A DNA stretch of 64,000 nt from Paenalcaligenes suwonensis (lineage in GTDB: Bacteria > Pseudomonadota > Gammaproteobacteria > Burkholderiales > Burkholderiaceae_B), in NCBI RefSeq assembly GCF_011290505.1, contig NZ_JAANPV010000002.1, positions 1 to 64,000 on the forward strand, in the 5' to 3' direction. Of the stretch, positions 18,156-27,955 are shown piece by piece. Numbering within the stretch: position 1 is the first letter of the stretch; each line of letters opens with the position of its first letter. A program made the translations under genes and the position numbers. Under the pieces are notes generated by a model that ran no database searches, had not been told where the DNA came from, and worked only from the letters and a program-made list of their open reading frames with translations.

Positions 18156-19226
18156 ATGGCTATTTATTCAGACTCTCTTCGCAGCGAATCATCCCCCGCA
18201 CCCCGTATGGTTGAGGCTACAGCACAGTCTCCCAACGAAGAATCTATTGAGCGTGCGTTACGCCCAAAAACGCTGCATGACTATGTAGGTCAGCAGCGTG
18301 TACGCGATCAACTCGAAATTTTTATTGCGGCGGCTCGCGGACGCCAAGAGGCACTGGATCACGTTCTATTATTTGGCCCACCAGGCTTGGGTAAAACCAC
18401 CTTGGCACACATCGTGGCCCAAGAAATGGGGGTACGCCTGCACCAAACTTCTGGCCCCGTGCTAGAAAAACCCGGCGACTTAGCCGCGCTACTCACGAAT
18501 CTGGATAAAAACGACGTATTGTTTATTGATGAAATCCATAGGCTGTCGCCCGTAGTAGAAGAAATTCTCTACCCCGCCATGGAAGACTATCAAATAGACA
18601 TCATGATTGGTGATGGTCCCGCTGCACGCAGTGTCAAAATCGACTTACAGCCCTTCACCTTGGTAGGTGCTACCACCCGTGCCGGTATGCTGACCAACCC
18701 CCTGCGCGACCGTTTCGGTATTGTGTCTAGACTAGAGTTCTACAACACGGCCGACTTACAACACATTGTAGAACGCAGTGCCCGCCTACTTAACGTGGAA
18801 TGCGTAGAAGACGGCGCTCAAGAAATCGCCCGTCGCTCACGTGGCACGCCACGCATTGCTAACCGCTTGCTGCGGCGTGTACGCGATTATGCCGATGTAA
18901 AAGCCAACGGCACCATCTGCTCACAAACCGCCAGCAATGCCTTGGCGCTACTTGAAGTAGACCCCTCTGGGCTAGACCTCATGGACCGCAAATTATTAGA
19001 AGCGATTATTCATCGTTTTGATGGTGGCCCCGTAGGGGTAGACAGCTTGGCCGCCGCTATAGGTGAAGAACGCGACACCATTGAAGATGTCATCGAGCCT
19101 TACCTGATTCAACACGGTTTTATGCAACGCACCCCGCGCGGACGTACCGCCACACGCATGGCATGGACACACCTAGGCCTTACCCCTAGCGCCAATGCCG
19201 TAGGCAGTGGTGCCTTATTCGACTGA
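18156..19226 (+). CDS. ruvB: Holliday junction branch migration helicase RuvB
   Basis: A 356-residue AAA+ motor that drives Holliday junction branch migration with RuvA. Motifs: [11 protein letters not shown] at about 37-47, Walker [10 protein letters not shown] (about 75-83), Walker [10 protein letters not shown], sensor G-A-T-T-R-A-G, arginine finger region P-L-R-D-R-F-G-I, and the C-terminal winged helix with Q-R-T-P-R-G-R. Start 18156 is chosen as the family-like M-A-I; an upstream in-frame extension would run through the LexA-like box. The last 12 bases overlap recQ on the opposite strand. Confidence 0.96.
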
Positions 19227-21132: not shown

Positions 21133-22917
21133 TCACGCTTTGGTGCTGTTAAAAACCGCTGTGACTTCTGCCCCATCCAAGGAGCGTTTGATCGCCGTAT
21201 ATTTTTCCAATAGCGCCGATTTATACACCACACCCAGTAAGCGAGGCTCTGCCTCTTCACTGACCACCGGCAAACGTTCACCACTGAAATTCACGAAATA
21301 ATCTTGGGCCTCGTCCAAACTTAGGCTAGGCGTTAAGGTTTTCACAAAATCGGGACGCAACACATCGGCCAAACACAAATTATCCGTATCCGAGTGGTGT
21401 AAGAGCAAACGGGTTAAATCTTGTTGGGCTACCACCCCTTGGAAAACGTTATTGGCATTCACCACATACACATACTTCACGGGGTAGTCCAAAAACATCT
21501 GTAAGGCATCGGCAATTTTGGCGTCATCGTGCAGCACTGTTTCTGCTGGCCGCACTAGCTCGTTTAACTGCGTATGTCTAAGCGTACTGCGCAAACGTTC
21601 GTTTTGCTCACGCACCAGCACCACATCGTACATAGCGACTTCCGCCAGCAACCTGGCCACAAAATACGCCACTACTGTCGCGATAATCAGCGGCAACACC
21701 AACGCATAGCTCAGCGTCATTTCAAACAGCATCAATATTGCCATCAGCGGCGCACTGGTAGCCGCCCCCAAAAATGCCCCCATCCCCACCAGCGTAAACA
21801 AATGCAGGGGAATAGATAAACCGGGTACCACTGACAACAACAATTGTCCGCACAAGGTACCAAAGGCGGCCCCCACAAAGAGCGCCGGCGTAAACACCCC
21901 ACCTATAGCCCCAGAACCTACTGTTAACGCTGTGGCTAACACTTTGGCAAACAGCATGCCTACTACCATGTACCATGCCCACGGTTCATGCAGTAACGCA
22001 GTCACTACACTGTAGCCATTGCCCGCCACATCTGGAATAGCGATGAGCAACAGCCCTAATAACAACCCACCCACCGCTAAGCGCAAATACAGCGGAATAC
22101 CTGTACGGGCAAACCGGTCTTTAAACAAGGTCATCAGCTTTAGAAAACCCGGTGCCGCAACCCCTACCAACACGCCCAGCAGCACAAACACCCAGATATC
22201 AATGCCGACTACACTTTGCACATCAGGCATTTCGTATAAGGGTTGGTAAATACCCAAAATACGCATGGTGAGGTTTGCTACAGCTGCCGCCACCAACAAC
22301 GGGCCTAAGCTTTGAATATTCAACGTACCTAATACGATTTCGGCCACAAACACGGCGCCTGCCAAGGGGGTACCATAAGCGGCACTAACACCCGCCGCTC
22401 CACCACACGCTACCAACAACCGCAAATGCGTCGCCCCCACCTGTAGCAATCGTCCCAACATAGACGCCACTAACGACGCCAAGTGGATCATGGCCCCTTC
22501 CCTACCTATAGAGCCACCCGTAGCCACCGTAAACAACGACGATAAGGTGCGCAGCAAACCTTGGCGAATAGACAAACGCCCATCGCCCAAGGTGACCGCT
22601 TCCATGTAATCTTCGGCCATGGCGCTTTTTCGTCGTTTCGCCAACCACAGCAAAATACCAGCCACTAACCCACCTATAGTAGGCAGCAGCAAACGCCACC
22701 ACCACGATAGGTCGTGCATGACATCCGAAATTTCGCCGGATTGCCCTGTGAGTAAATGTTGAACCAAGAACATGGCTTCATGAAAAAGCCAAATAGATAA
22801 GGCTCCAGCGATGCCCATTAGCACCGCCCAACCTAGTACCCACAACATAGAAGAAGCTTGCCCCAGCTTTTGTCGGGTAGACATCAGCACAGAAGACGAG
22901 CGTGGGTTTTCCTGCAC
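21133..22917 (-). CDS. ClcB-like voltage-gated chloride channel/antiporter with CBS domains
   Basis: A 594-residue ClC-family membrane protein (about 10-12 hydrophobic helices, residues 25-440) followed by a C-terminal cytoplasmic CBS pair (about 465-580). Selectivity-filter regions: G-D-G-R-L-S in place of GSGIP, G-R-E-G-A with the gating glutamate, and G-G-V-F-T-P. At the internal proton-path position the E-E pair of ClcA appears as E-I, as I recall for ClcB-like proteins, so it may be a channel rather than an antiporter. Translation probably starts at GTG 22917 with AGAGG upstream inside the end of the cydB-like gene, only 2 bases from its stop, so the two are coupled. An ATG at 22884 is the alternative. 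Confidence 0.88.
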   Translation of the reverse strand: MQENPRSSSVLMSTRQKLGQASSMLWVLGWAVLMGIAGALSIWLFHEAMFLVQHLLTGQSGEISDVMHDLSWWWRLLLPTIGGLVAGILLWLAKRRKSAMAEDYMEAVTLGDGRLSIRQGLLRTLSSLFTVATGGSIGREGAMIHLASLVASMLGRLLQVGATHLRLLVACGGAAGVSAAYGTPLAGAVFVAEIVLGTLNIQSLGPLLVAAAVANLTMRILGIYQPLYEMPDVQSVVGIDIWVFVLLGVLVGVAAPGFLKLMTLFKDRFARTGIPLYLRLAVGGLLLGLLLIAIPDVAGNGYSVVTALLHEPWAWYMVVGMLFAKVLATALTVGSGAIGGVFTPALFVGAAFGTLCGQLLLSVVPGLSIPLHLFTLVGMGAFLGAATSAPLMAILMLFEMTLSYALVLPLIIATVVAYFVARLLAEVAMYDVVLVREQNERLRSTLRHTQLNELVRPAETVLHDDAKIADALQMFLDYPVKYVYVVNANNVFQGVVAQQDLTRLLLHHSDTDNLCLADVLRPDFVKTLTPSLSLDEAQDYFVNFSGERLPVVSEEAEPRLLGVVYKSALLEKYTAIKRSLDGAEVTAVFNSTKA

Positions 22918-22919
22918 TG

Positions 22920-23969
22920 TTAGCCTCTGAACTCGGGTGGCTGAGGAGGCTTAGATAAGCCAAACATGCCCTTATATACCCAAATATTAAACAGCAACAT
23001 AATAGGAATGATCAGCACTGCCACCCCTCCTACTATCTGCAATACAGGTAATGACGCTGCGCCATCCCAAATGGTGATTTCATCTAAGACCAAGAAGGGG
23101 AAGAAGCTAAATGCCAAGCCCGACATCACCGCCACAAAGACAATCAAGGTCAGCATAAAAGGGAGTGCGGTGGTTCGGTAGCTACTATTGATCATGCGCT
23201 GCAAACACATTTCTAGTGAAATAAAGCACAGCAACAATGCCCCCCATAGCACTAACACGACGACACGCTGTAGGCCTTCGCTCCATTTCAACAACACGCC
23301 TGGGTTAGCCAACGCTAACACCACTGATGCCGCAATAGCCCCCGATGCAAACCAACGTACGGTCACACTGCCCCAACGTACCGCCCTTGCGCGCAGCTCG
23401 CCTGCTTCACGCATAATCAACCAACTGGCTCCTAGCAACGCATACGCCGCAACAGAGCACAGCCCCATGAAAATACTGAACCAGAAGTAACCTGCTCCGG
23501 TGTTAAAGCTCACCACTACTTTAGCCAGCAACACACCGTGTACAAACGCGGTAATCACCGAGCCCACACCGAACGCTACCTGCCACTTGGCTTGTAACTC
23601 GGCTGGGGCACGCAAACGCATCTCAAAGCTGACTGAGCGCAACAACACCCCTAAGGCCAAGCCACACAACGGCAAGTACAAACTGCCCATCACGGCTTCC
23701 CACGCGTGGGGAAAGGCACAAAAGAACAGCACCATGCCTAAGAACAACCAATACTCATTGGCATCCCGCCATGGGCTAAGCAACGACAACATACGTGGGC
23801 GCAGCGCAGCCGGCGCAATAAGTGACAGGCTGCCTACCCCAATATCAAAGCCGTCCAAAATGGTGCCGGCAAGCACCACAATAAAGAACAGCCCCAAAAA
23901 GACTAAAGGCATCCAGAACACGGGATCGGTGATAGCAAGCCCCATCGCATTGGCTAAGACTTCGATCAT
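22920..23969 (-). CDS. CydB-like (cytochrome bd subunit II) protein
   Basis: A 349-residue membrane protein homologous to subunit II of cytochrome bd oxidase, with about eight or nine hydrophobic helices. Conserved points: D-G-F-D-I-G-V-G (residues 39-46), W-R-D-A-N-E-Y-W-L-F (E. coli: W-D-G-N-Q-V-W-L), F-x-F-F-P-F and T-I-W-D-G-A-A-S (E. coli: T-M-W-D-A-T-S-S), and a final W-V-Y-K-G-M-F-G. In bd oxidases subunit II scaffolds subunit I. Here subunit I (the next gene) lacks recognised heme ligands, so enzymatic function is doubtful. Its ATG overlaps the subunit I stop by 4 bases and its stop is 2 bases from the ClC gene. Confidence 0.85.
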   Translation of the reverse strand: MIEVLANAMGLAITDPVFWMPLVFLGLFFIVVLAGTILDGFDIGVGSLSLIAPAALRPRMLSLLSPWRDANEYWLFLGMVLFFCAFPHAWEAVMGSLYLPLCGLALGVLLRSVSFEMRLRAPAELQAKWQVAFGVGSVITAFVHGVLLAKVVVSFNTGAGYFWFSIFMGLCSVAAYALLGASWLIMREAGELRARAVRWGSVTVRWFASGAIAASVVLALANPGVLLKWSEGLQRVVVLVLWGALLLCFISLEMCLQRMINSSYRTTALPFMLTLIVFVAVMSGLAFSFFPFLVLDEITIWDGAASLPVLQIVGGVAVLIIPIMLLFNIWVYKGMFGLSKPPQPPEFRG

Positions 23970-25303
23970 GCACGTCCCCTTCTACGAGCCACTGGTACCA
24001 CACCGTACCTAACGATGTAGCGCACCAACATGAAAAACCCTACCAGACAAAACCCGTACACAACGGCGTAGCTCACCAACGATGCTAAGGCTGACTCAAA
24101 AGGCACATCAGAAAACACGTCTGTGTATTTCACGGTGCCATTGACCATATACGGCAAAGCCCCCGCAAAGTGATACAGCAAGCCCACGATTAACAGCAGC
24201 CACCCAGCCGCCCCCATCGCGATCAACACGCGACGCCAGCCTGTGGATAAAGATGAAGGGTCATAATGCAGTGGACGCACACGCCAGCATGTCACGATGG
24301 TCACCAGCAAAATTACCAGCCCCAACAGCAACGCTATTCTAAAACTGAAAAACACCAGCGCTACGGGGGGTAACAGGTCTTGCCCTGCCAAGCCCAAATA
24401 CTCACCGGTTTCTGATTGTGGAATCCACATAGCCCCTAGACCATGCCATCCATAGCTATACAGGTTACCTAGCTCTGCGCCTGCCGGGTACGCAATAAAC
24501 GGCCAGAACACAGCAGCATCAGGTTGCCAACGAGCCATCGTGGCTAAGGCTTTTAAGGGTTCGTACTGCACCACCATTTGCCCATAGCCCCAGACAGTTG
24601 CCCCGAGCAGCACTGTGCTTAGCAACAACACCCACAGCACTAATCTGAAGGCGCGACGTTCGCTTTCATCGGCTGGCCTACGCAGGCTTTTTGCAGCCGT
24701 AACAGCCATAACAAAGCAACATGCCACCACCATGCTTAACAGCAAAAACAACGCTAACTGCCATACAAAAGCGGAACCCGTTAGCAGTTCATACCAATCA
24801 GTGACCACATACCCTTTGTCTTGCCATGTCACCCCTACTGGCGCTTGCATCCATGAAGACAAAGCGATCAGCACACTGACTGTTAGCGTGCTGCCTACCG
24901 CCACAGCACCCACAATGATGGTATGCAACCAATGCGGCAACGACCTGTAAGCAAACAGCATCAAGCCTAAGAAGCCACTTTTAAACAGCAGCGTTACTGC
25001 CAATGCTAAGGCAATTAATGGTCCTGAGACCTCGCTAGTACGGCTACTAAAACCCGGCCATAAGCTACCTAGCTGTATCAGCATGGGTAAGCTTGAGGCA
25101 AAGCCAAGCACCACGGTTAACGCAAACACCCGTACCCAAAAGCGGTAACTGGCCAGCCAGACCGAATGCAGGCCTGATAACGTACGTAACCTAAATATCA
25201 GCAACAGCCACGCTAGCCCTAGCTCCATAGCAAAGAAAATTGCCATAAAACTCAGACTGCTAAAAAACTGCAACTGTGATAACCAAAGGGCAGAATGCGT
25301 CAT
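23966..25303 (-). CDS. Divergent CydA-like protein lacking known heme ligands
   Basis: A 445-residue membrane protein that aligns along most of its length with CydA (for example L-S-x-L-Q-F at 8-13, F-W-V-R-V-F at 55-60, S-S-W-M-Q-A-P-V-G at 149-157, S-F-R-I at 320-323, A-G-W at 366-368). Compared with the E. coli sequence as I recall it, the heme ligand His19 corresponds to Met20, the acidic Glu99/Glu107 pair to Ala100/Lys108, His186 to a helix around 175-200 without any His, Met393 to Ala324, and G-R-Q-P-W to G-L-L-Y-H (374-378). The Q-loop Glu of K-L-A-A-I-E is also lost. It may be non-oxidase. It is the first gene of the cydA-like, cydB-like, ClC operon. Confidence 0.8.
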   Translation of the reverse strand: MTHSALWLSQLQFFSSLSFMAIFFAMELGLAWLLLIFRLRTLSGLHSVWLASYRFWVRVFALTVVLGFASSLPMLIQLGSLWPGFSSRTSEVSGPLIALALAVTLLFKSGFLGLMLFAYRSLPHWLHTIIVGAVAVGSTLTVSVLIALSSWMQAPVGVTWQDKGYVVTDWYELLTGSAFVWQLALFLLLSMVVACCFVMAVTAAKSLRRPADESERRAFRLVLWVLLLSTVLLGATVWGYGQMVVQYEPLKALATMARWQPDAAVFWPFIAYPAGAELGNLYSYGWHGLGAMWIPQSETGEYLGLAGQDLLPPVALVFFSFRIALLLGLVILLVTIVTCWRVRPLHYDPSSLSTGWRRVLIAMGAAGWLLLIVGLLYHFAGALPYMVNGTVKYTDVFSDVPFESALASLVSYAVVYGFCLVGFFMLVRYIVRYGVVPVARRRGRA

Positions 25304-25415
25304 AATGTCAGCTAGTTTAGAACGTGTTTATGAATTGTGCTGATGAAAAGCGCATGATGTGGACAGAACATGGCAAAATGGGTGATTACCCGATTATTTT
25401 CTTTGTATTTTACGT

Positions 25416-27173
25416 ATGACCACTGAATCTACAACGGCTCCTGTTTCGAATTTCCTACGCTCCATTATCGACCAAGATCTGAAGGCTCAGCGTCATGCGT
25501 CCAAACGCTGGGGCGGAAAACCAGGCCCTGCGCAGGTGCACGCTACTGCAGACGTAGACCCTGCCCGCATCCGCACTCGTTTCCCCCCCGAACCCAACGG
25601 CTACTTGCACATTGGTCACGCCAAAAGCATTTGCCTGAACTTCGGTTTGGCTCGCGACTATTTAGGCGCCTGCCATTTGCGTTTTGACGACACCAACCCT
25701 GAAAAAGAAGAACAGGAATACGTAGACGCCATTATTGATATGGTGCACTGGTTAGGCTTCGATTGGAAATTCCAAAATGAAACTAACTTGTACTTTGCCA
25801 GCGATTACTTTGAAGACATGTACGCCTTTGCCGAAGCCTTGATCCAAGGTGGCTTTGCATACGTAGATGAACAAAGCCCTGAGCAAATGCGTGAAACACG
25901 CGGCACATTAACCTCGCCAGGCACTAATTCGCCATGGCGTGATCGCCCAGCCGACGAATCGCTGACCCTGCTGCGCGAAATGCGTGATGGTAAACATCCC
26001 GATGGCAGCATGGCATTGCGTGCAAAAATTGATATGGCATCGCCCAACATCAACTTGCGCGACCCTGTGATGTACCGTATTCGCCATGCTGAACACCACC
26101 GCACTGGCGACAAATGGTGCATTTACCCTATGTACAGCTGGGCTCACCCCGTAGAAGACGCGCTGGAACAAATCACGCACAGTATCTGTACGCTTGAGTT
26201 TGAAGATCAACGCCCTTTCTATAACTGGACACTAGAGCGTCTGCGTGACTTAGGCTTTTTGGCCGACCCACTGCCTCAACAGTACGAATTTGCACGCTTA
26301 TACCTAAGCTATGTGGTCACCAGCAAACGCAAATTGCGTCAGTTGGTCGTAGAAAACCATGTAAACGGTTGGGACGACCCACGCATGCCCACCTTGGCAG
26401 GTTTGCGTCGCCGTGGTTACACCCCTGAATCCATTCGCCTTTTCTGCGAACGCATTGGTGTGTCCAAAGCTGACTCCCGCATTGACTACAGCATTCTGGA
26501 ACAAGCTCTGCGTGACGATCTAGACCCTAAAGCACCACGTAGCGTGGCTGTACTGGATCCTATCAAACTGATCATCACCAATTACCCAGAAGGTCAAAGC
26601 GAAGAGTGCACGGCACCCGCGCACCCTAAAGACCCAGATGCTGGCCAACGTACCTTCCCACTGACGCGTGAGTTGTGGATTGAACGCGATGACTTCCGCA
26701 TCGAACCTGAGAAAAAATACTTCCGTCTGTACCCCGGCAACACCGTGCGCCTGAAATACGGCTACGTTGTTACCTGCACAGGTTACAAACAAGACGACCA
26801 AGGTAACGTCACTGAAGTGTATGTGGAATACCTGCCAGACACGAAAAGCGGTACCCCTGGTGCTGACTCGGTAAAAGTAAAAGGCAACATCACTTGGATT
26901 AGCGTAGAACACGCTATTCCTGCCACCGTACGCTTGTACGACCGTTTGTTCAGCGATCCACACCCAGATACTGGCGACAAAGACTTCCTGGCACTGTTGA
27001 ACCCTAACTCACTGACTACCGTAGAAGCATGGGTAGAACCCGGCTTGGTGGCAGAACCCGGTGCAAACTGGCAGTTTGAGCGCTTGGGCTACTTTATCGC
27101 CGACCGTGAAGAATCCACGCCAGAAAAACCTGTACTGAACCGTACAGCAACCTTGCGTGATACATGGGTATAA
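25416..27173 (+). CDS. glnS: Glutaminyl-tRNA synthetase
   Basis: A 585-residue class I aminoacyl-tRNA synthetase charging tRNA-Gln. Motifs: [16 protein letters not shown] (residues 49-64, HIGH box), the tRNA acceptor-end region with R-F-D-D-T-N-P, and the KMSKS-equivalent V-V-T-S-K-R-K-L (about residue 305). C-terminal beta-barrel anticodon-binding domains occupy residues 350-570. An N-terminal extension of about 45 residues compared with E. coli is common in Betaproteobacteria. It is transcribed divergently from the bd-like operon across 112 bases and is followed by minC after 2 bases. Confidence 0.97.
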
Positions 27174-27175
27174 GC

Positions 27176-27955
27176 ATGTCAGGAACTCGTAAAGGTCCAC
27201 AGGCGCTAGACTTCAAAAGCGCCACCCTGTACACCGTACGCTTGGTGTTGCACAGCAGTGAGTTAGACGAGCTGCTGTCTGCCTTGGCACAACGCATGCA
27301 CGACGCTGGCTCTTTTTTCGAAAATGAGCCAGTAGTGGTAGACGCCAGCCAGTTGGATGACGACACCACCTTAGACTGGGCGGCGTTACTCGCAGCCCTG
27401 AACACCCACAAGCTAAACGCAGTAGGCGTGGTGGCTAATGGCGCATTGCTACAAGCAGCCACTGCTGCGGGCTTACATGAGGTAGATCTCTCTAACGCCC
27501 CTACGCGCCCTACCGCCAGCCCCAACGTGCCAGAAGCAGAGGTTCCTACCCTGTCTACAGCACAAGAACAAAACACCGCAACACCTGCCGAAGTTGCCCC
27601 CGAGGTTATTACCCAAATCGCGCCAGCCGCCATGGTCATCAATAGACAATTGCGTTCTGGTCAGCGTGTCTATGCACGCGATACCGATTTAGTAGTGATC
27701 GGTGTGGTAGGTCAAGGTGCTGAGGTGATCGCTGATGGTAACATTCACGTGTATGGGCCCTTGCGCGGCAAGGCGATGGCTGGTGCTCGTGGCGATACCA
27801 ATGCGCGTATTTTTACGACCGAACTGGATCCAGAACTCATCGCCATTGCGGGTGTGTACCGTATAGTAGATGAGCCTCTGGAAAAACCGCTGCACAAGCA
27901 ACCCGCTGTGATCCAGTTAGAAGGTGAGAATCTCAGTATTCATTTACTTTCTTAA
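27176..27955 (+). CDS. minC: Septum site-determining protein MinC
   Basis: A 259-residue inhibitor of FtsZ ring assembly, recruited to the poles by MinD. The N-terminal domain (about 1-105) binds FtsZ; a Pro/Ala/Thr-rich linker (about 105-150) joins the C-terminal beta-helix (about 160-259) with [11 protein letters not shown]-like turns and the conserved [19 protein letters not shown] 27176 (two bases after the glnS stop) is chosen; another ATG at 27164 lies inside glnS. minD follows after 102 bases and minE after that. Confidence 0.94.

What the first reader, a model, noticed from the sequence alone, without database searches (positions are those of the whole stretch)
23966..25303. CydA-like protein with all recognised heme ligands replaced
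Seen: the 445-residue protein keeps CydA topology and many landmarks (L-S-x-L-Q-F, S-S-W-M-Q-A-P-V-G, S-F-R-I, A-G-W). Known for E. coli CydA: His19, His186 and Met393 bind hemes, Glu99 and Glu107 lie by the active site, and G-R-Q-P-W is conserved. Here the matching positions are Met20, a helix with no His, Ala324, Ala100, Lys108 and G-L-L-Y-H. The canonical bd oxidase families keep the active-site hemes. Inference: this is a non-oxidase membrane protein or binds cofactors differently.
Basis: partly seen in the sequence, partly recalled or inferred. Interest (0 to 1): 0.8.

Follow-up and report, generated by a model that had tools for sequence, protein, structure and literature searches.

The report
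Heme-stripped cytochrome bd look-alike pair
This bacterium carries, beside three ordinary copies, a fourth gene pair that looks like the respiratory enzyme cytochrome bd but has lost every residue known to hold its hemes; related bacteria keep the pair at the same place, so it probably does a job other than breathing oxygen.

Summary
Confirmed, with corrections. It belongs to one clade found in 48 of 61 sampled genomes of the window's family-level group; no other of 369 class genomes showed it at E <= 1e-45. Wherever the contig reaches, glnS lies on the opposite strand beside it. Its CydB-like partner is now the better conserved subunit, and both genes show purifying selection in 16 of 16 pairs tried. 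Four positions on or near the published proton path carry new, nearly fixed basic residues. Members near the clade's base keep H19 and often E445 or D445, which suggests stepwise heme loss. Two near-complete genomes have no other CydA or CydB, arguing against a bd helper. Bordetella 'cydAB3', in print a bd oxidase, very probably belongs here. Best reading: a non-oxidase, probably heme-free heterodimer repurposed around its basic inter-subunit path. Its ligand is unknown.

The parts
23966..25303 (-). CydA-like subunit, 445 aa, without heme ligands (P0001)
22920..23969 (-). CydB-like partner, 349 aa; start overlaps the CydA-like stop by 4 nt
   Evidence: PF02322, 182 bits; the same 4-nt overlap in 106 of 110 family loci
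25244..25246 (-). codon of Met20, place of heme ligand His19
25130..25132 (-). codon of Arg58 of A (E. coli K57A; R in 66 of 66 family members)
25004..25006 (-). codon of Ala100, place of Glu99
24980..24982 (-). codon of Lys108 of A, place of Glu107 (K 64, R 2 of 66)
24749..24751 (-). codon of Leu185, place of heme ligand His186
24536..24538 (-). codon of Met256, place of Glu257
24332..24334 (-). codon of Ala324, place of heme ligand Met393
24167..24169 (-). codon of Phe379, place of heme ligand Glu445
24158..24160 (-). codon of Ala382, place of Arg448 of GRQPW
23766..23768 (-). codon of Arg68 of B (E. coli Trp57B; R in 65 of 66)
23763..23765 (-). codon of Asp69 of B (E. coli Asp58B, kept; D in 64 of 66)
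23610..23612 (-). codon of Arg120 of B (E. coli K109B; R in 66 of 66)
25304..25415 (.). intergenic region shared with divergent glnS
25314..25319 (-). TAAACT, a -10-like box 10 nt before the ATG; would give a nearly leaderless mRNA (inference)
   Evidence: TCTA[AC]ACT upstream in 89 of 111 family loci, exactly 10 nt before the start in 80; the simple promoter scan did not report it
25416..27173 (+). glnS (name from reading the sequence), divergent neighbour of the pair
21133..22917 (-). ClC-type gene (name from reading the sequence) starting 2 nt after the CydB-like stop; beside the pair in part of the clade only

Best explanation
A duplicated CIO-type cydAB pair, fixed beside glnS in an ancestor of this Alcaligenaceae-type group, has become a non-oxidase membrane heterodimer. 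SHOWN by sequence: all four heme ligands are missing in this protein and in most of its clade (49 of 66); the pair is syntenic and under purifying selection; subunit B is now the better conserved one; four positions on or near the path that in E. coli carries protons along the A/B interface have new, nearly fixed Arg or Lys, while Asp58B, an acid at D105B, Arg100B and Arg391A are kept. INFERRED: it carries no heme in this species, cannot reduce O2, and its work is done at this basic inter-subunit path and the emptied pocket. Most likely it binds, or lets pass, a small anionic or quinone-like ligand, or acts as a gated ion path or sensor. Likelihood by layer: not an O2 reductase about 0.9; heme-free in this species about 0.8; functional site at the re-charged A/B path about 0.3 (set at 0.35 in my draft; lowered on recheck because two further fixed switches in B, at E. 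coli 191 and 354, have no known tie to that path). The physiological role is not known.
For: Ligands: 0 of 66 at E99, E107, H186, E257 against 43 of 43 canonical; H19 kept in 12, M393 in 5, E445 in 8, R448 in 11 of 66. Profile alignment unambiguous. One clade, SH-aLRT 100 (quick trees). glnS on the opposite strand beside the pair in 45 of 48 loci and in 62 of 64 later ones, the other five at or within 0.5 kb of contig ends, against 0 of 5 canonical comparison copies. dN/dS in 16 pairs that I chose: A 0.029-0.233, B 0.007-0.139; window pair 0.040 and 0.007, with dS 1.5-1.6, near saturation. A exceeds B in identity in only 22 of 903 family pairs, but in 116 of 120 canonical CIO pairs. Switches: K57A→R 66/66, E107A→K 64/66 (+2 R), W57B→R 65/66, K109B→R 66/66. 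K57A and K109B lie on the water chain D119A-K57A-K109B-D105B-Y379B-D58B (PMC6853902 passages); W57B is next to D58B in sequence; E107A is named as part of a proton pathway in the title of a reference seen there. G015 and G051 have no other CydA or CydB. Members near the base keep H19 with E445 or D445.
Against: No experiment, spectrum or structure; structure prediction failed, then was switched off. R391 is invariant and K252 mostly kept (45 of 66, R in 8), so quinone chemistry is not excluded. H127A (65 of 66), H144B (49 of 66) and C171B (65 of 66) are conserved, so another cofactor cannot be ruled out. K→R is a mild change, and Arg is a poor proton relay, which speaks against a simple proton channel. 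Two other B switches (191 and 354 in E. coli numbering) are not known to touch the path. D119A, the path's first residue, is not conserved in canonical CydA either (D in 7 of 48 non-family rows). The switches mark a site but not its ligand. No constant third gene points to a pathway.
Confidence: 0.6

Rival explanations
1. It still binds one or two hemes through other ligands, or weakly in the old pockets, and does some other redox reaction (for example quinol-linked peroxide, NO or metal reduction).
For: 19 loci (L134-L152) keep H19, 18 of them E445 or D445, 17 R448; L059 keeps H19, M393, E445 and R448. R391 and most K252 persist; H127A and H144B are conserved.
Against: In the window protein H19, H186, M393 and E445 are all gone, no new clade-wide His/Met pair was seen and there is no CXXCH. 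Small residues G66 and G70 are mostly A, S or T, as if pockets were filled. H127A is also in 46 of 47 canonical CydA, where I know of no ligand role (recalled).
Confidence: 0.17
2. It is an assembly or regulatory partner of genuine cytochrome bd, for example by forming mixed A/B complexes.
For: The window's genome has three canonical CydA and three other CydB, and 5 of the 12 genomes that I chose for (G012, G022, G028, G046, G053) hold both kinds of CydA.
Against: G015 and G051 (both listed as 99% complete) carry the pair as their only CydA/CydB homologue; in draft G036 the only matches are pieces of this gene and one CydB. CydD is below the curated cut-off in 8 of 15 pair-carrying genomes and CydC in 8 of 15, but several of these have a canonical CIO copy, so this last point is weak.
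Confidence: 0.1
3. It is a decaying relic of a lost oxidase.
For: Some carriers are broken: G008 has a stop inside, G049 lacks a stretch; the B gene in L159 is out of frame after a G tract. Ligand positions drift freely. 13 of 61 sampled family genomes show no member.
Against: dN/dS below 0.24 in 16 of 16 pairs for both genes, presence in 33 of the 43 genus codes of the family sample (my count; two of the 33 only by a split or broken copy), class-specific residues near fixation, constant place.
Confidence: 0.06
4. It is a working bd oxidase whose hemes sit differently, as the annotation of Bordetella cydAB3 assumes.
For: Automatic annotation, and a published genetic study listing cydAB3 as a bd-type oxidase of predicted high affinity (PMC11257404 passages).
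Against: No ligand left in the window protein or L159. A strain with only cyd3 could not be made; this held equally for cco, cio, ctaD2 and cyo2, and cyd3 transcripts were low, so it is weak evidence.
Confidence: 0.04

Closest known systems
Bordetella cydAB3 (BP3225-BP3224; BB4012-BB4011)
   Same: L159, whose flanking kinase gene ends with the exact primer printed for risK/BP3223 (1 of 173 loci), holds a family member beside glnS with none of the four heme ligands. That this is BP3225-3224 is inferred from the adjacent locus number.
   Different: In print it is a bd-type oxidase of predicted high affinity (PMC11257404 passages) or a second cytochrome bd not expressed in the laboratory (PMC12914433 passages). 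In L159 the B gene is out of frame after a G tract; BP3224 is listed among putative phase-variable genes (PMC1891110, one table row).
CIO-type (short Q-loop) CydAB, nearest canonical copies L157/L158
   Same: Same fold family and A-B gene order; L157 is the nearest canonical row on the tree (SH-aLRT 100).
   Different: They keep all ligands, and no glnS lies on the opposite strand nearby.
E. coli cytochrome bd-I CydA and CydB
   Same: CydA aligns over its length; CydB is itself a heme-free subunit related to CydA by pseudo two-fold symmetry (PMC6853902 abstract).
   Different: E. coli CydA has three hemes; here neither subunit has the ligands for them.
Archaeal CydAA' (Murali et al. 2021)
   Same: Recalled: a superfamily paralogue with altered sites.
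   Different: Recalled only; the paper is not held. CydAA' is archaeal and was reported active with b hemes.

Membership tests
CydA homology family (PF01654) | profile match above the curated cut-off over the full length | tested here: met
   239.8 bits against 26.2, residues 8-434
cytochrome bd oxygen reductase | CydB partner encoded beside it | tested here: met
   PF02322 182 bits; 4-nt overlap in 106 of 110 loci
cytochrome bd oxygen reductase | axial ligands of heme b558 (H186, M393) | tested here: not met
   L185 and A324; H186 kept 0 of 66, M393 5 of 66
cytochrome bd oxygen reductase | ligands of the di-heme site (H19, E445, E99) | tested here: not met
   M20, F379, A100 in the window; kept 12, 8 and 0 of 66 in the clade
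cytochrome bd oxygen reductase | E107 of the proton path | tested here: not met
   K108; K 64, R 2 of 66 against E 43 of 43
quinol-type bd (qOR) | quinol-side residues K252, E257, GRQPW | tested here: not met
   K252 kept, E257 lost in 66 of 66, GRQPW reads GALPY
cytochrome bd oxygen reductase | hemes seen in spectra; O2 uptake | not testable with these tools
   needs protein
pseudogene | no purifying selection | tested here: not met
   dN/dS below 0.24 in 16 of 16 chosen pairs
archaeal CydAA' | pairing of two CydA-type subunits (feature recalled, not read) | tested here: not met
   the partner matches PF02322 (CydB) and no other Pfam family was listed for it

The most novel reading that the evidence does not exclude
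A terminal oxidase has been turned into a different kind of membrane machine: a heme-free channel, transporter or sensor whose basic residues (Arg58 and Lys108 of A, Arg68 and Arg120 of B) line the former proton path and lead to the emptied heme pocket, with subunit B as the working part.
Probability: 0.25. Interest if true: 0.9.

Novelty: new variant of a known kind. Interest (0 to 1): 0.72.

Why it matters
Members of this respiratory-oxidase superfamily are taken to keep at least the active-site hemes (recalled from Murali et al. 2021, not read here). Here a clade has largely lost their ligands yet keeps the pair under selection, with surviving partial forms that hint at the order of loss. 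It implies that 'cytochrome bd' calls by Pfam or automatic annotation include a class that probably cannot respire, very probably Bordetella cydAB3 among them, so counts of oxidases and inferences of oxygen affinity in these genera need correcting. It also opens a concrete question: what does a CydAB fold do without heme?

Tried and rejected
Named relatives: the genome-contig scan gave only L035 and an Acetobacter copy, the latter canonical. Plasmids: 644 records matched; the 40 listed reach at most 31.0% identity and were not read further. Rfam: nothing at gathering scores in 22000-27500. A third operon member: no constant one among the neighbours tested. An FNR-like TTGA-N6-TCAA site: none in 22 upstream regions. 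CydDC dependence: mixed. Deletion-length match to cydAB3: fits, but canonical copies such as L043 (2374) and L044 (2369) come close too, so it does not discriminate. The readings 'unique to this genome', 'pseudogene' and 'helper of bd' were tested and found wanting. The first alignment script took many loci in the wrong orientation and is void; one search replaces it. E. coli numbers in the table are off by one because of an extra Met; onward is corrected. One search did nothing.

Limits: family loci were chosen, not exhaustive. One search reported 211 of 268 family genomes with a match to the L059 protein at E <= 1e-60; that includes canonical relatives, and its list was cut. Of its 30 loci I used 29 (L104 repeats L059) and fetched 40 more that I picked (35 family, 5 canonical). 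One genome (G013) is in twice, as L065 and L114; the 85% filter treats such repeats. Of 111 family proteins 5 (L007, L014, L060, L061, L068: fragments or short starts, or a B gene cut by a contig end) were dropped before the non-redundant counts; L074 (stop inside) was never counted there. The B gene of L159 enters with an out-of-frame start, which probably makes some of the single exceptions in B. Trees are of the quick kind; branching among L059, L051, the L134-L152 group and the rest is unresolved, with warnings on long branches (L051, L058, L063 and others) and letter make-up. One search lists only matches at E <= 1e-45, so a very divergent member elsewhere could be missed. Pairwise counts are not independent.
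Full report
WHAT IS THERE. On the minus strand the window holds a tight gene row: a CydA-like gene (25303-23966, 445 aa), a CydB-like gene (23969-22920, 349 aa) overlapping it by 4 nt, and a ClC-type gene starting 2 nt later. glnS runs divergently from 25416. The names glnS, ClC, recQ and ruvB are my reading of the sequences; no family search was run on them. The CydA-like protein matches PF01654 at 240 bits and its partner PF02322 at 182 bits. The same genome has three other CydA genes at 555-573 bits, which keep every ligand, and three other CydB genes. The gene is thus a divergent fourth copy.

OBSERVATION. Family and canonical sequences were aligned separately and compared as profiles (66 and 43 non-redundant sequences): probability 100, E 2.7e-93, confidence 9 through the blocks that hold the key columns. 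In the window protein H19 is M20, E99 A100, E107 K108, H186 L185, E257 M256, M393 A324, W441 L375, E445 F379 and R448 A382. K252 and R391 are kept (K251, R322). It did not list E445, which passages of PMC6853902 call a heme ligand. The roles of H19, H186 and M393 rest on passages of PMC5322542.

NOT AN ISOLATED FREAK. In a search of 101 genomes with this protein, 48 of the 61 genomes of the window's own family-level group hold a relative that I then read as the same type (three of the 48, L060, L061 and L074, as partial or short frames). They cover 33 of the 43 genus codes in that sample (my count). A search of 369 class genomes, own included, at E <= 1e-45 lists besides itself 22 loci at 27-31% identity. 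All 22, read, keep the E. coli residue at 11 of the 12 key positions; the twelfth, 183, varies in canonical enzymes. So the trait is confined, as far as sampled, to one family-level group. The one named close relative is Alcaligenaceae bacterium 429 (90% identity; taxonomy). On quick trees the group is one clade with SH-aLRT 100 against all canonical rows (46 against 42; 82 against 13). Its nearest canonical neighbour is a second copy in the same family-level group (L157) that keeps all ligands and has no glnS on the opposite strand nearby.

SYNTENY AND SELECTION. In the first 48 loci glnS lies divergently beside the pair in 45; the other three (L013, L015, L068) stop at contig ends. In 64 further family loci a glnS frame lies on the opposite strand within about 2.5 kb in 62, the other two again at or within 0.5 kb of contig ends; in 5 canonical comparison loci, in none. 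A and B overlap by exactly 4 nt in 106 of 110 loci. In 16 close pairs that I picked from the tree, NG86 dN/dS is 0.029-0.233 for A and 0.007-0.139 for B. These are rough where dS exceeds 1, as in the window's own pair. Of seven canonical CydA pairs tried, two gave no dS and five gave 0.064-0.243. The genes are maintained about as strictly as canonical ones.

THE CENTRE OF GRAVITY HAS MOVED TO SUBUNIT B. Among 43 family loci, A exceeds B in identity in only 22 of 903 pairs (medians: A 44.9%, B 57.5%). Among 16 canonical CIO loci A exceeds B in 116 of 120 (medians 50.6% and 43.5%). The pairs are not independent, but the direction is opposite and strong.

WHAT IS FIXED AND WHAT DRIFTS. In 66 non-redundant members the ligand columns drift among mostly hydrophobic residues: H19 becomes M, L, F or V (H in 12), M393 mostly A (M in 5), E445 mostly L (E in 8, D in 5), H186 mostly L (H in none). 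Some positions are instead near-fixed in a new state. In A: K57→R (66 of 66; canonical K 40 of 43) and E107→K (64, R in 2; canonical E 43 of 43). In B: W57→R (65; canonical W 22 of 22), K109→R (66; canonical K 22 of 22), and two more, R at E. coli position 191 (65; canonical K 20 of 22, but R in E. coli itself) and Y354→F (64; canonical Y 22 of 22). Passages of PMC6853902 describe the E. coli water chain D119A, K57A, K109B, D105B, Y379B, D58B, then the heme d propionate, and a reference title there places E107 in a proton pathway. So two switches lie on this chain, one is next to D58B in sequence, one is E107, and two have no known tie to it. D119A is R in 106 of 111 members, but canonical sequences vary there. 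D58B (64 of 66), an acid at 105B (E, 66) and R100B (66) are kept. Conserved Gly66 and Gly70 have mostly become A, S or T, as if pockets were filled (inference).

PARTIAL FORMS AND ORDER OF LOSS. In 19 loci of one genus code (L134-L152) H19 is kept in all, E445 or D445 in 18 and R448 in 17, while K252 and M393 are gone; L073 of the same code has lost H19. L059 keeps H19, M393, E445 and R448, and L051 keeps E445 alone of the four ligands. All of these already lack E99, H186 and E257, and E107 is already K. Parsimony over 95 rows needs one change each for E99, E107, H186 and E257, two for H19, four each for E445 and R448, five for M393, six for W441 and seven for K252. The simplest reading is that the change at E107, the b558 His, E99 and E257 came first and the remaining ligands were lost later and repeatedly. 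The branching at the base is unresolved, and exchange with canonical copies was not tested.

TESTS OF RIVALS. If the pair served real cytochrome bd it should need one. Of 12 genomes that I chose, 9 have a CydA match; in G015 and G051 (both listed 99% complete) it is this gene alone, and in draft G036 only pieces of it. PF02322 likewise finds one CydB in each of these three. CydD passes its curated cut-off in 7 of 15 pair-carrying genomes and CydC in 7 of 15, which is mixed evidence. No CXXCH occurs in either protein. The His conserved in over 40% of members are H127A (65 of 66, also in 46 of 47 canonical), H429A (58, Tyr in the window), H153A (29, Gln in the window), H144B (49) and H202B (31, Val in the window). 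Decay is disfavoured by selection, though single lineages do break: G008 and G049 in A, L159 in B, and 13 of 61 sampled genomes show no member.

LINK TO BORDETELLA. The histidine-kinase gene beside its pair ends with the exact primer that PMC5020355 prints for risK (BP3223); the primer occurs in 1 of 173 loci. By locus number the neighbouring pair should be BP3224-BP3225 (inference). That operon is described as a second cytochrome bd not expressed in laboratory conditions (PMC12914433 passages). PMC1891110 sets BP3224 beside BB4011 (one table row), and PMC11257404 names BB4012-4011 cydAB3. Its stated deletion of 2373 bp is within 1 nt of the 2372 expected for a 446-aa A gene with a 4-nt overlap, but some canonical copies come close too. 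So cydAB3 very probably belongs to this clade and, judged by L159, lacks all four ligands. In that study a strain with only cyd3 could not be made; this was equally so for four other loci, cyd3 transcripts were low, and the single deletion grew like wild type (passages). None of this shows function.

MECHANISM. I commit to a non-oxidase heterodimer (about 0.9), heme-free in this species (about 0.8), whose site is the re-charged A/B path and the emptied pocket (about 0.3, lowered from 0.35 on recheck because of the two switches off the path). It would bind or pass a small anionic or quinone-like ligand, or sense one. Arg at both former Lys positions makes an efficient proton wire less likely (inference). 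The ligand remains open.

NOVELTY. Eight text searches (two of them by locus tag) and the passages read showed no description of a CydAB clade without heme ligands. Limits: only open-licence papers are held, listings were cut at 12-20 titles where more matched, and the main superfamily paper (Murali et al. 2021) is not held, so it may mention this group.

Noticed in passing
L159:4080-4160: A run of G puts the CydB-like gene out of frame in this Bordetella-type locus; BP3224 is listed among putative phase-variable genes (PMC1891110, one table row).
   Followed up: partly
25304-25415: TCTA[AC]ACT lies upstream in 89 of 111 family loci, exactly 10 nt before the start codon in 80, as if the mRNA were nearly leaderless; an element like CATTTTGCCACG recurs on the glnS side (by eye).
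   Followed up: partly
21133-22917: A ClC-type gene begins 2 nt after the CydB-like stop here and follows the pair in 13 of 48 loci (most flanks were only 1.5 kb, so this is a lower bound); it could hint at chloride or acid stress.
   Followed up: partly
L134-L152: Loci of one genus code (g26) keep H19, with E445 or D445 in 18 of 19, but lost K252: possible living intermediates of heme loss.
   Followed up: yes
19215-19226: The recQ-like and ruvB-like genes end tail to tail with a 12-nt overlap.
   Followed up: no
23457-23459: Cys171 of the CydB-like protein is conserved in 65 of 66 members, and Cys is common at A position 110 (48 of 66; Gly in the window); no role known.
   Followed up: no
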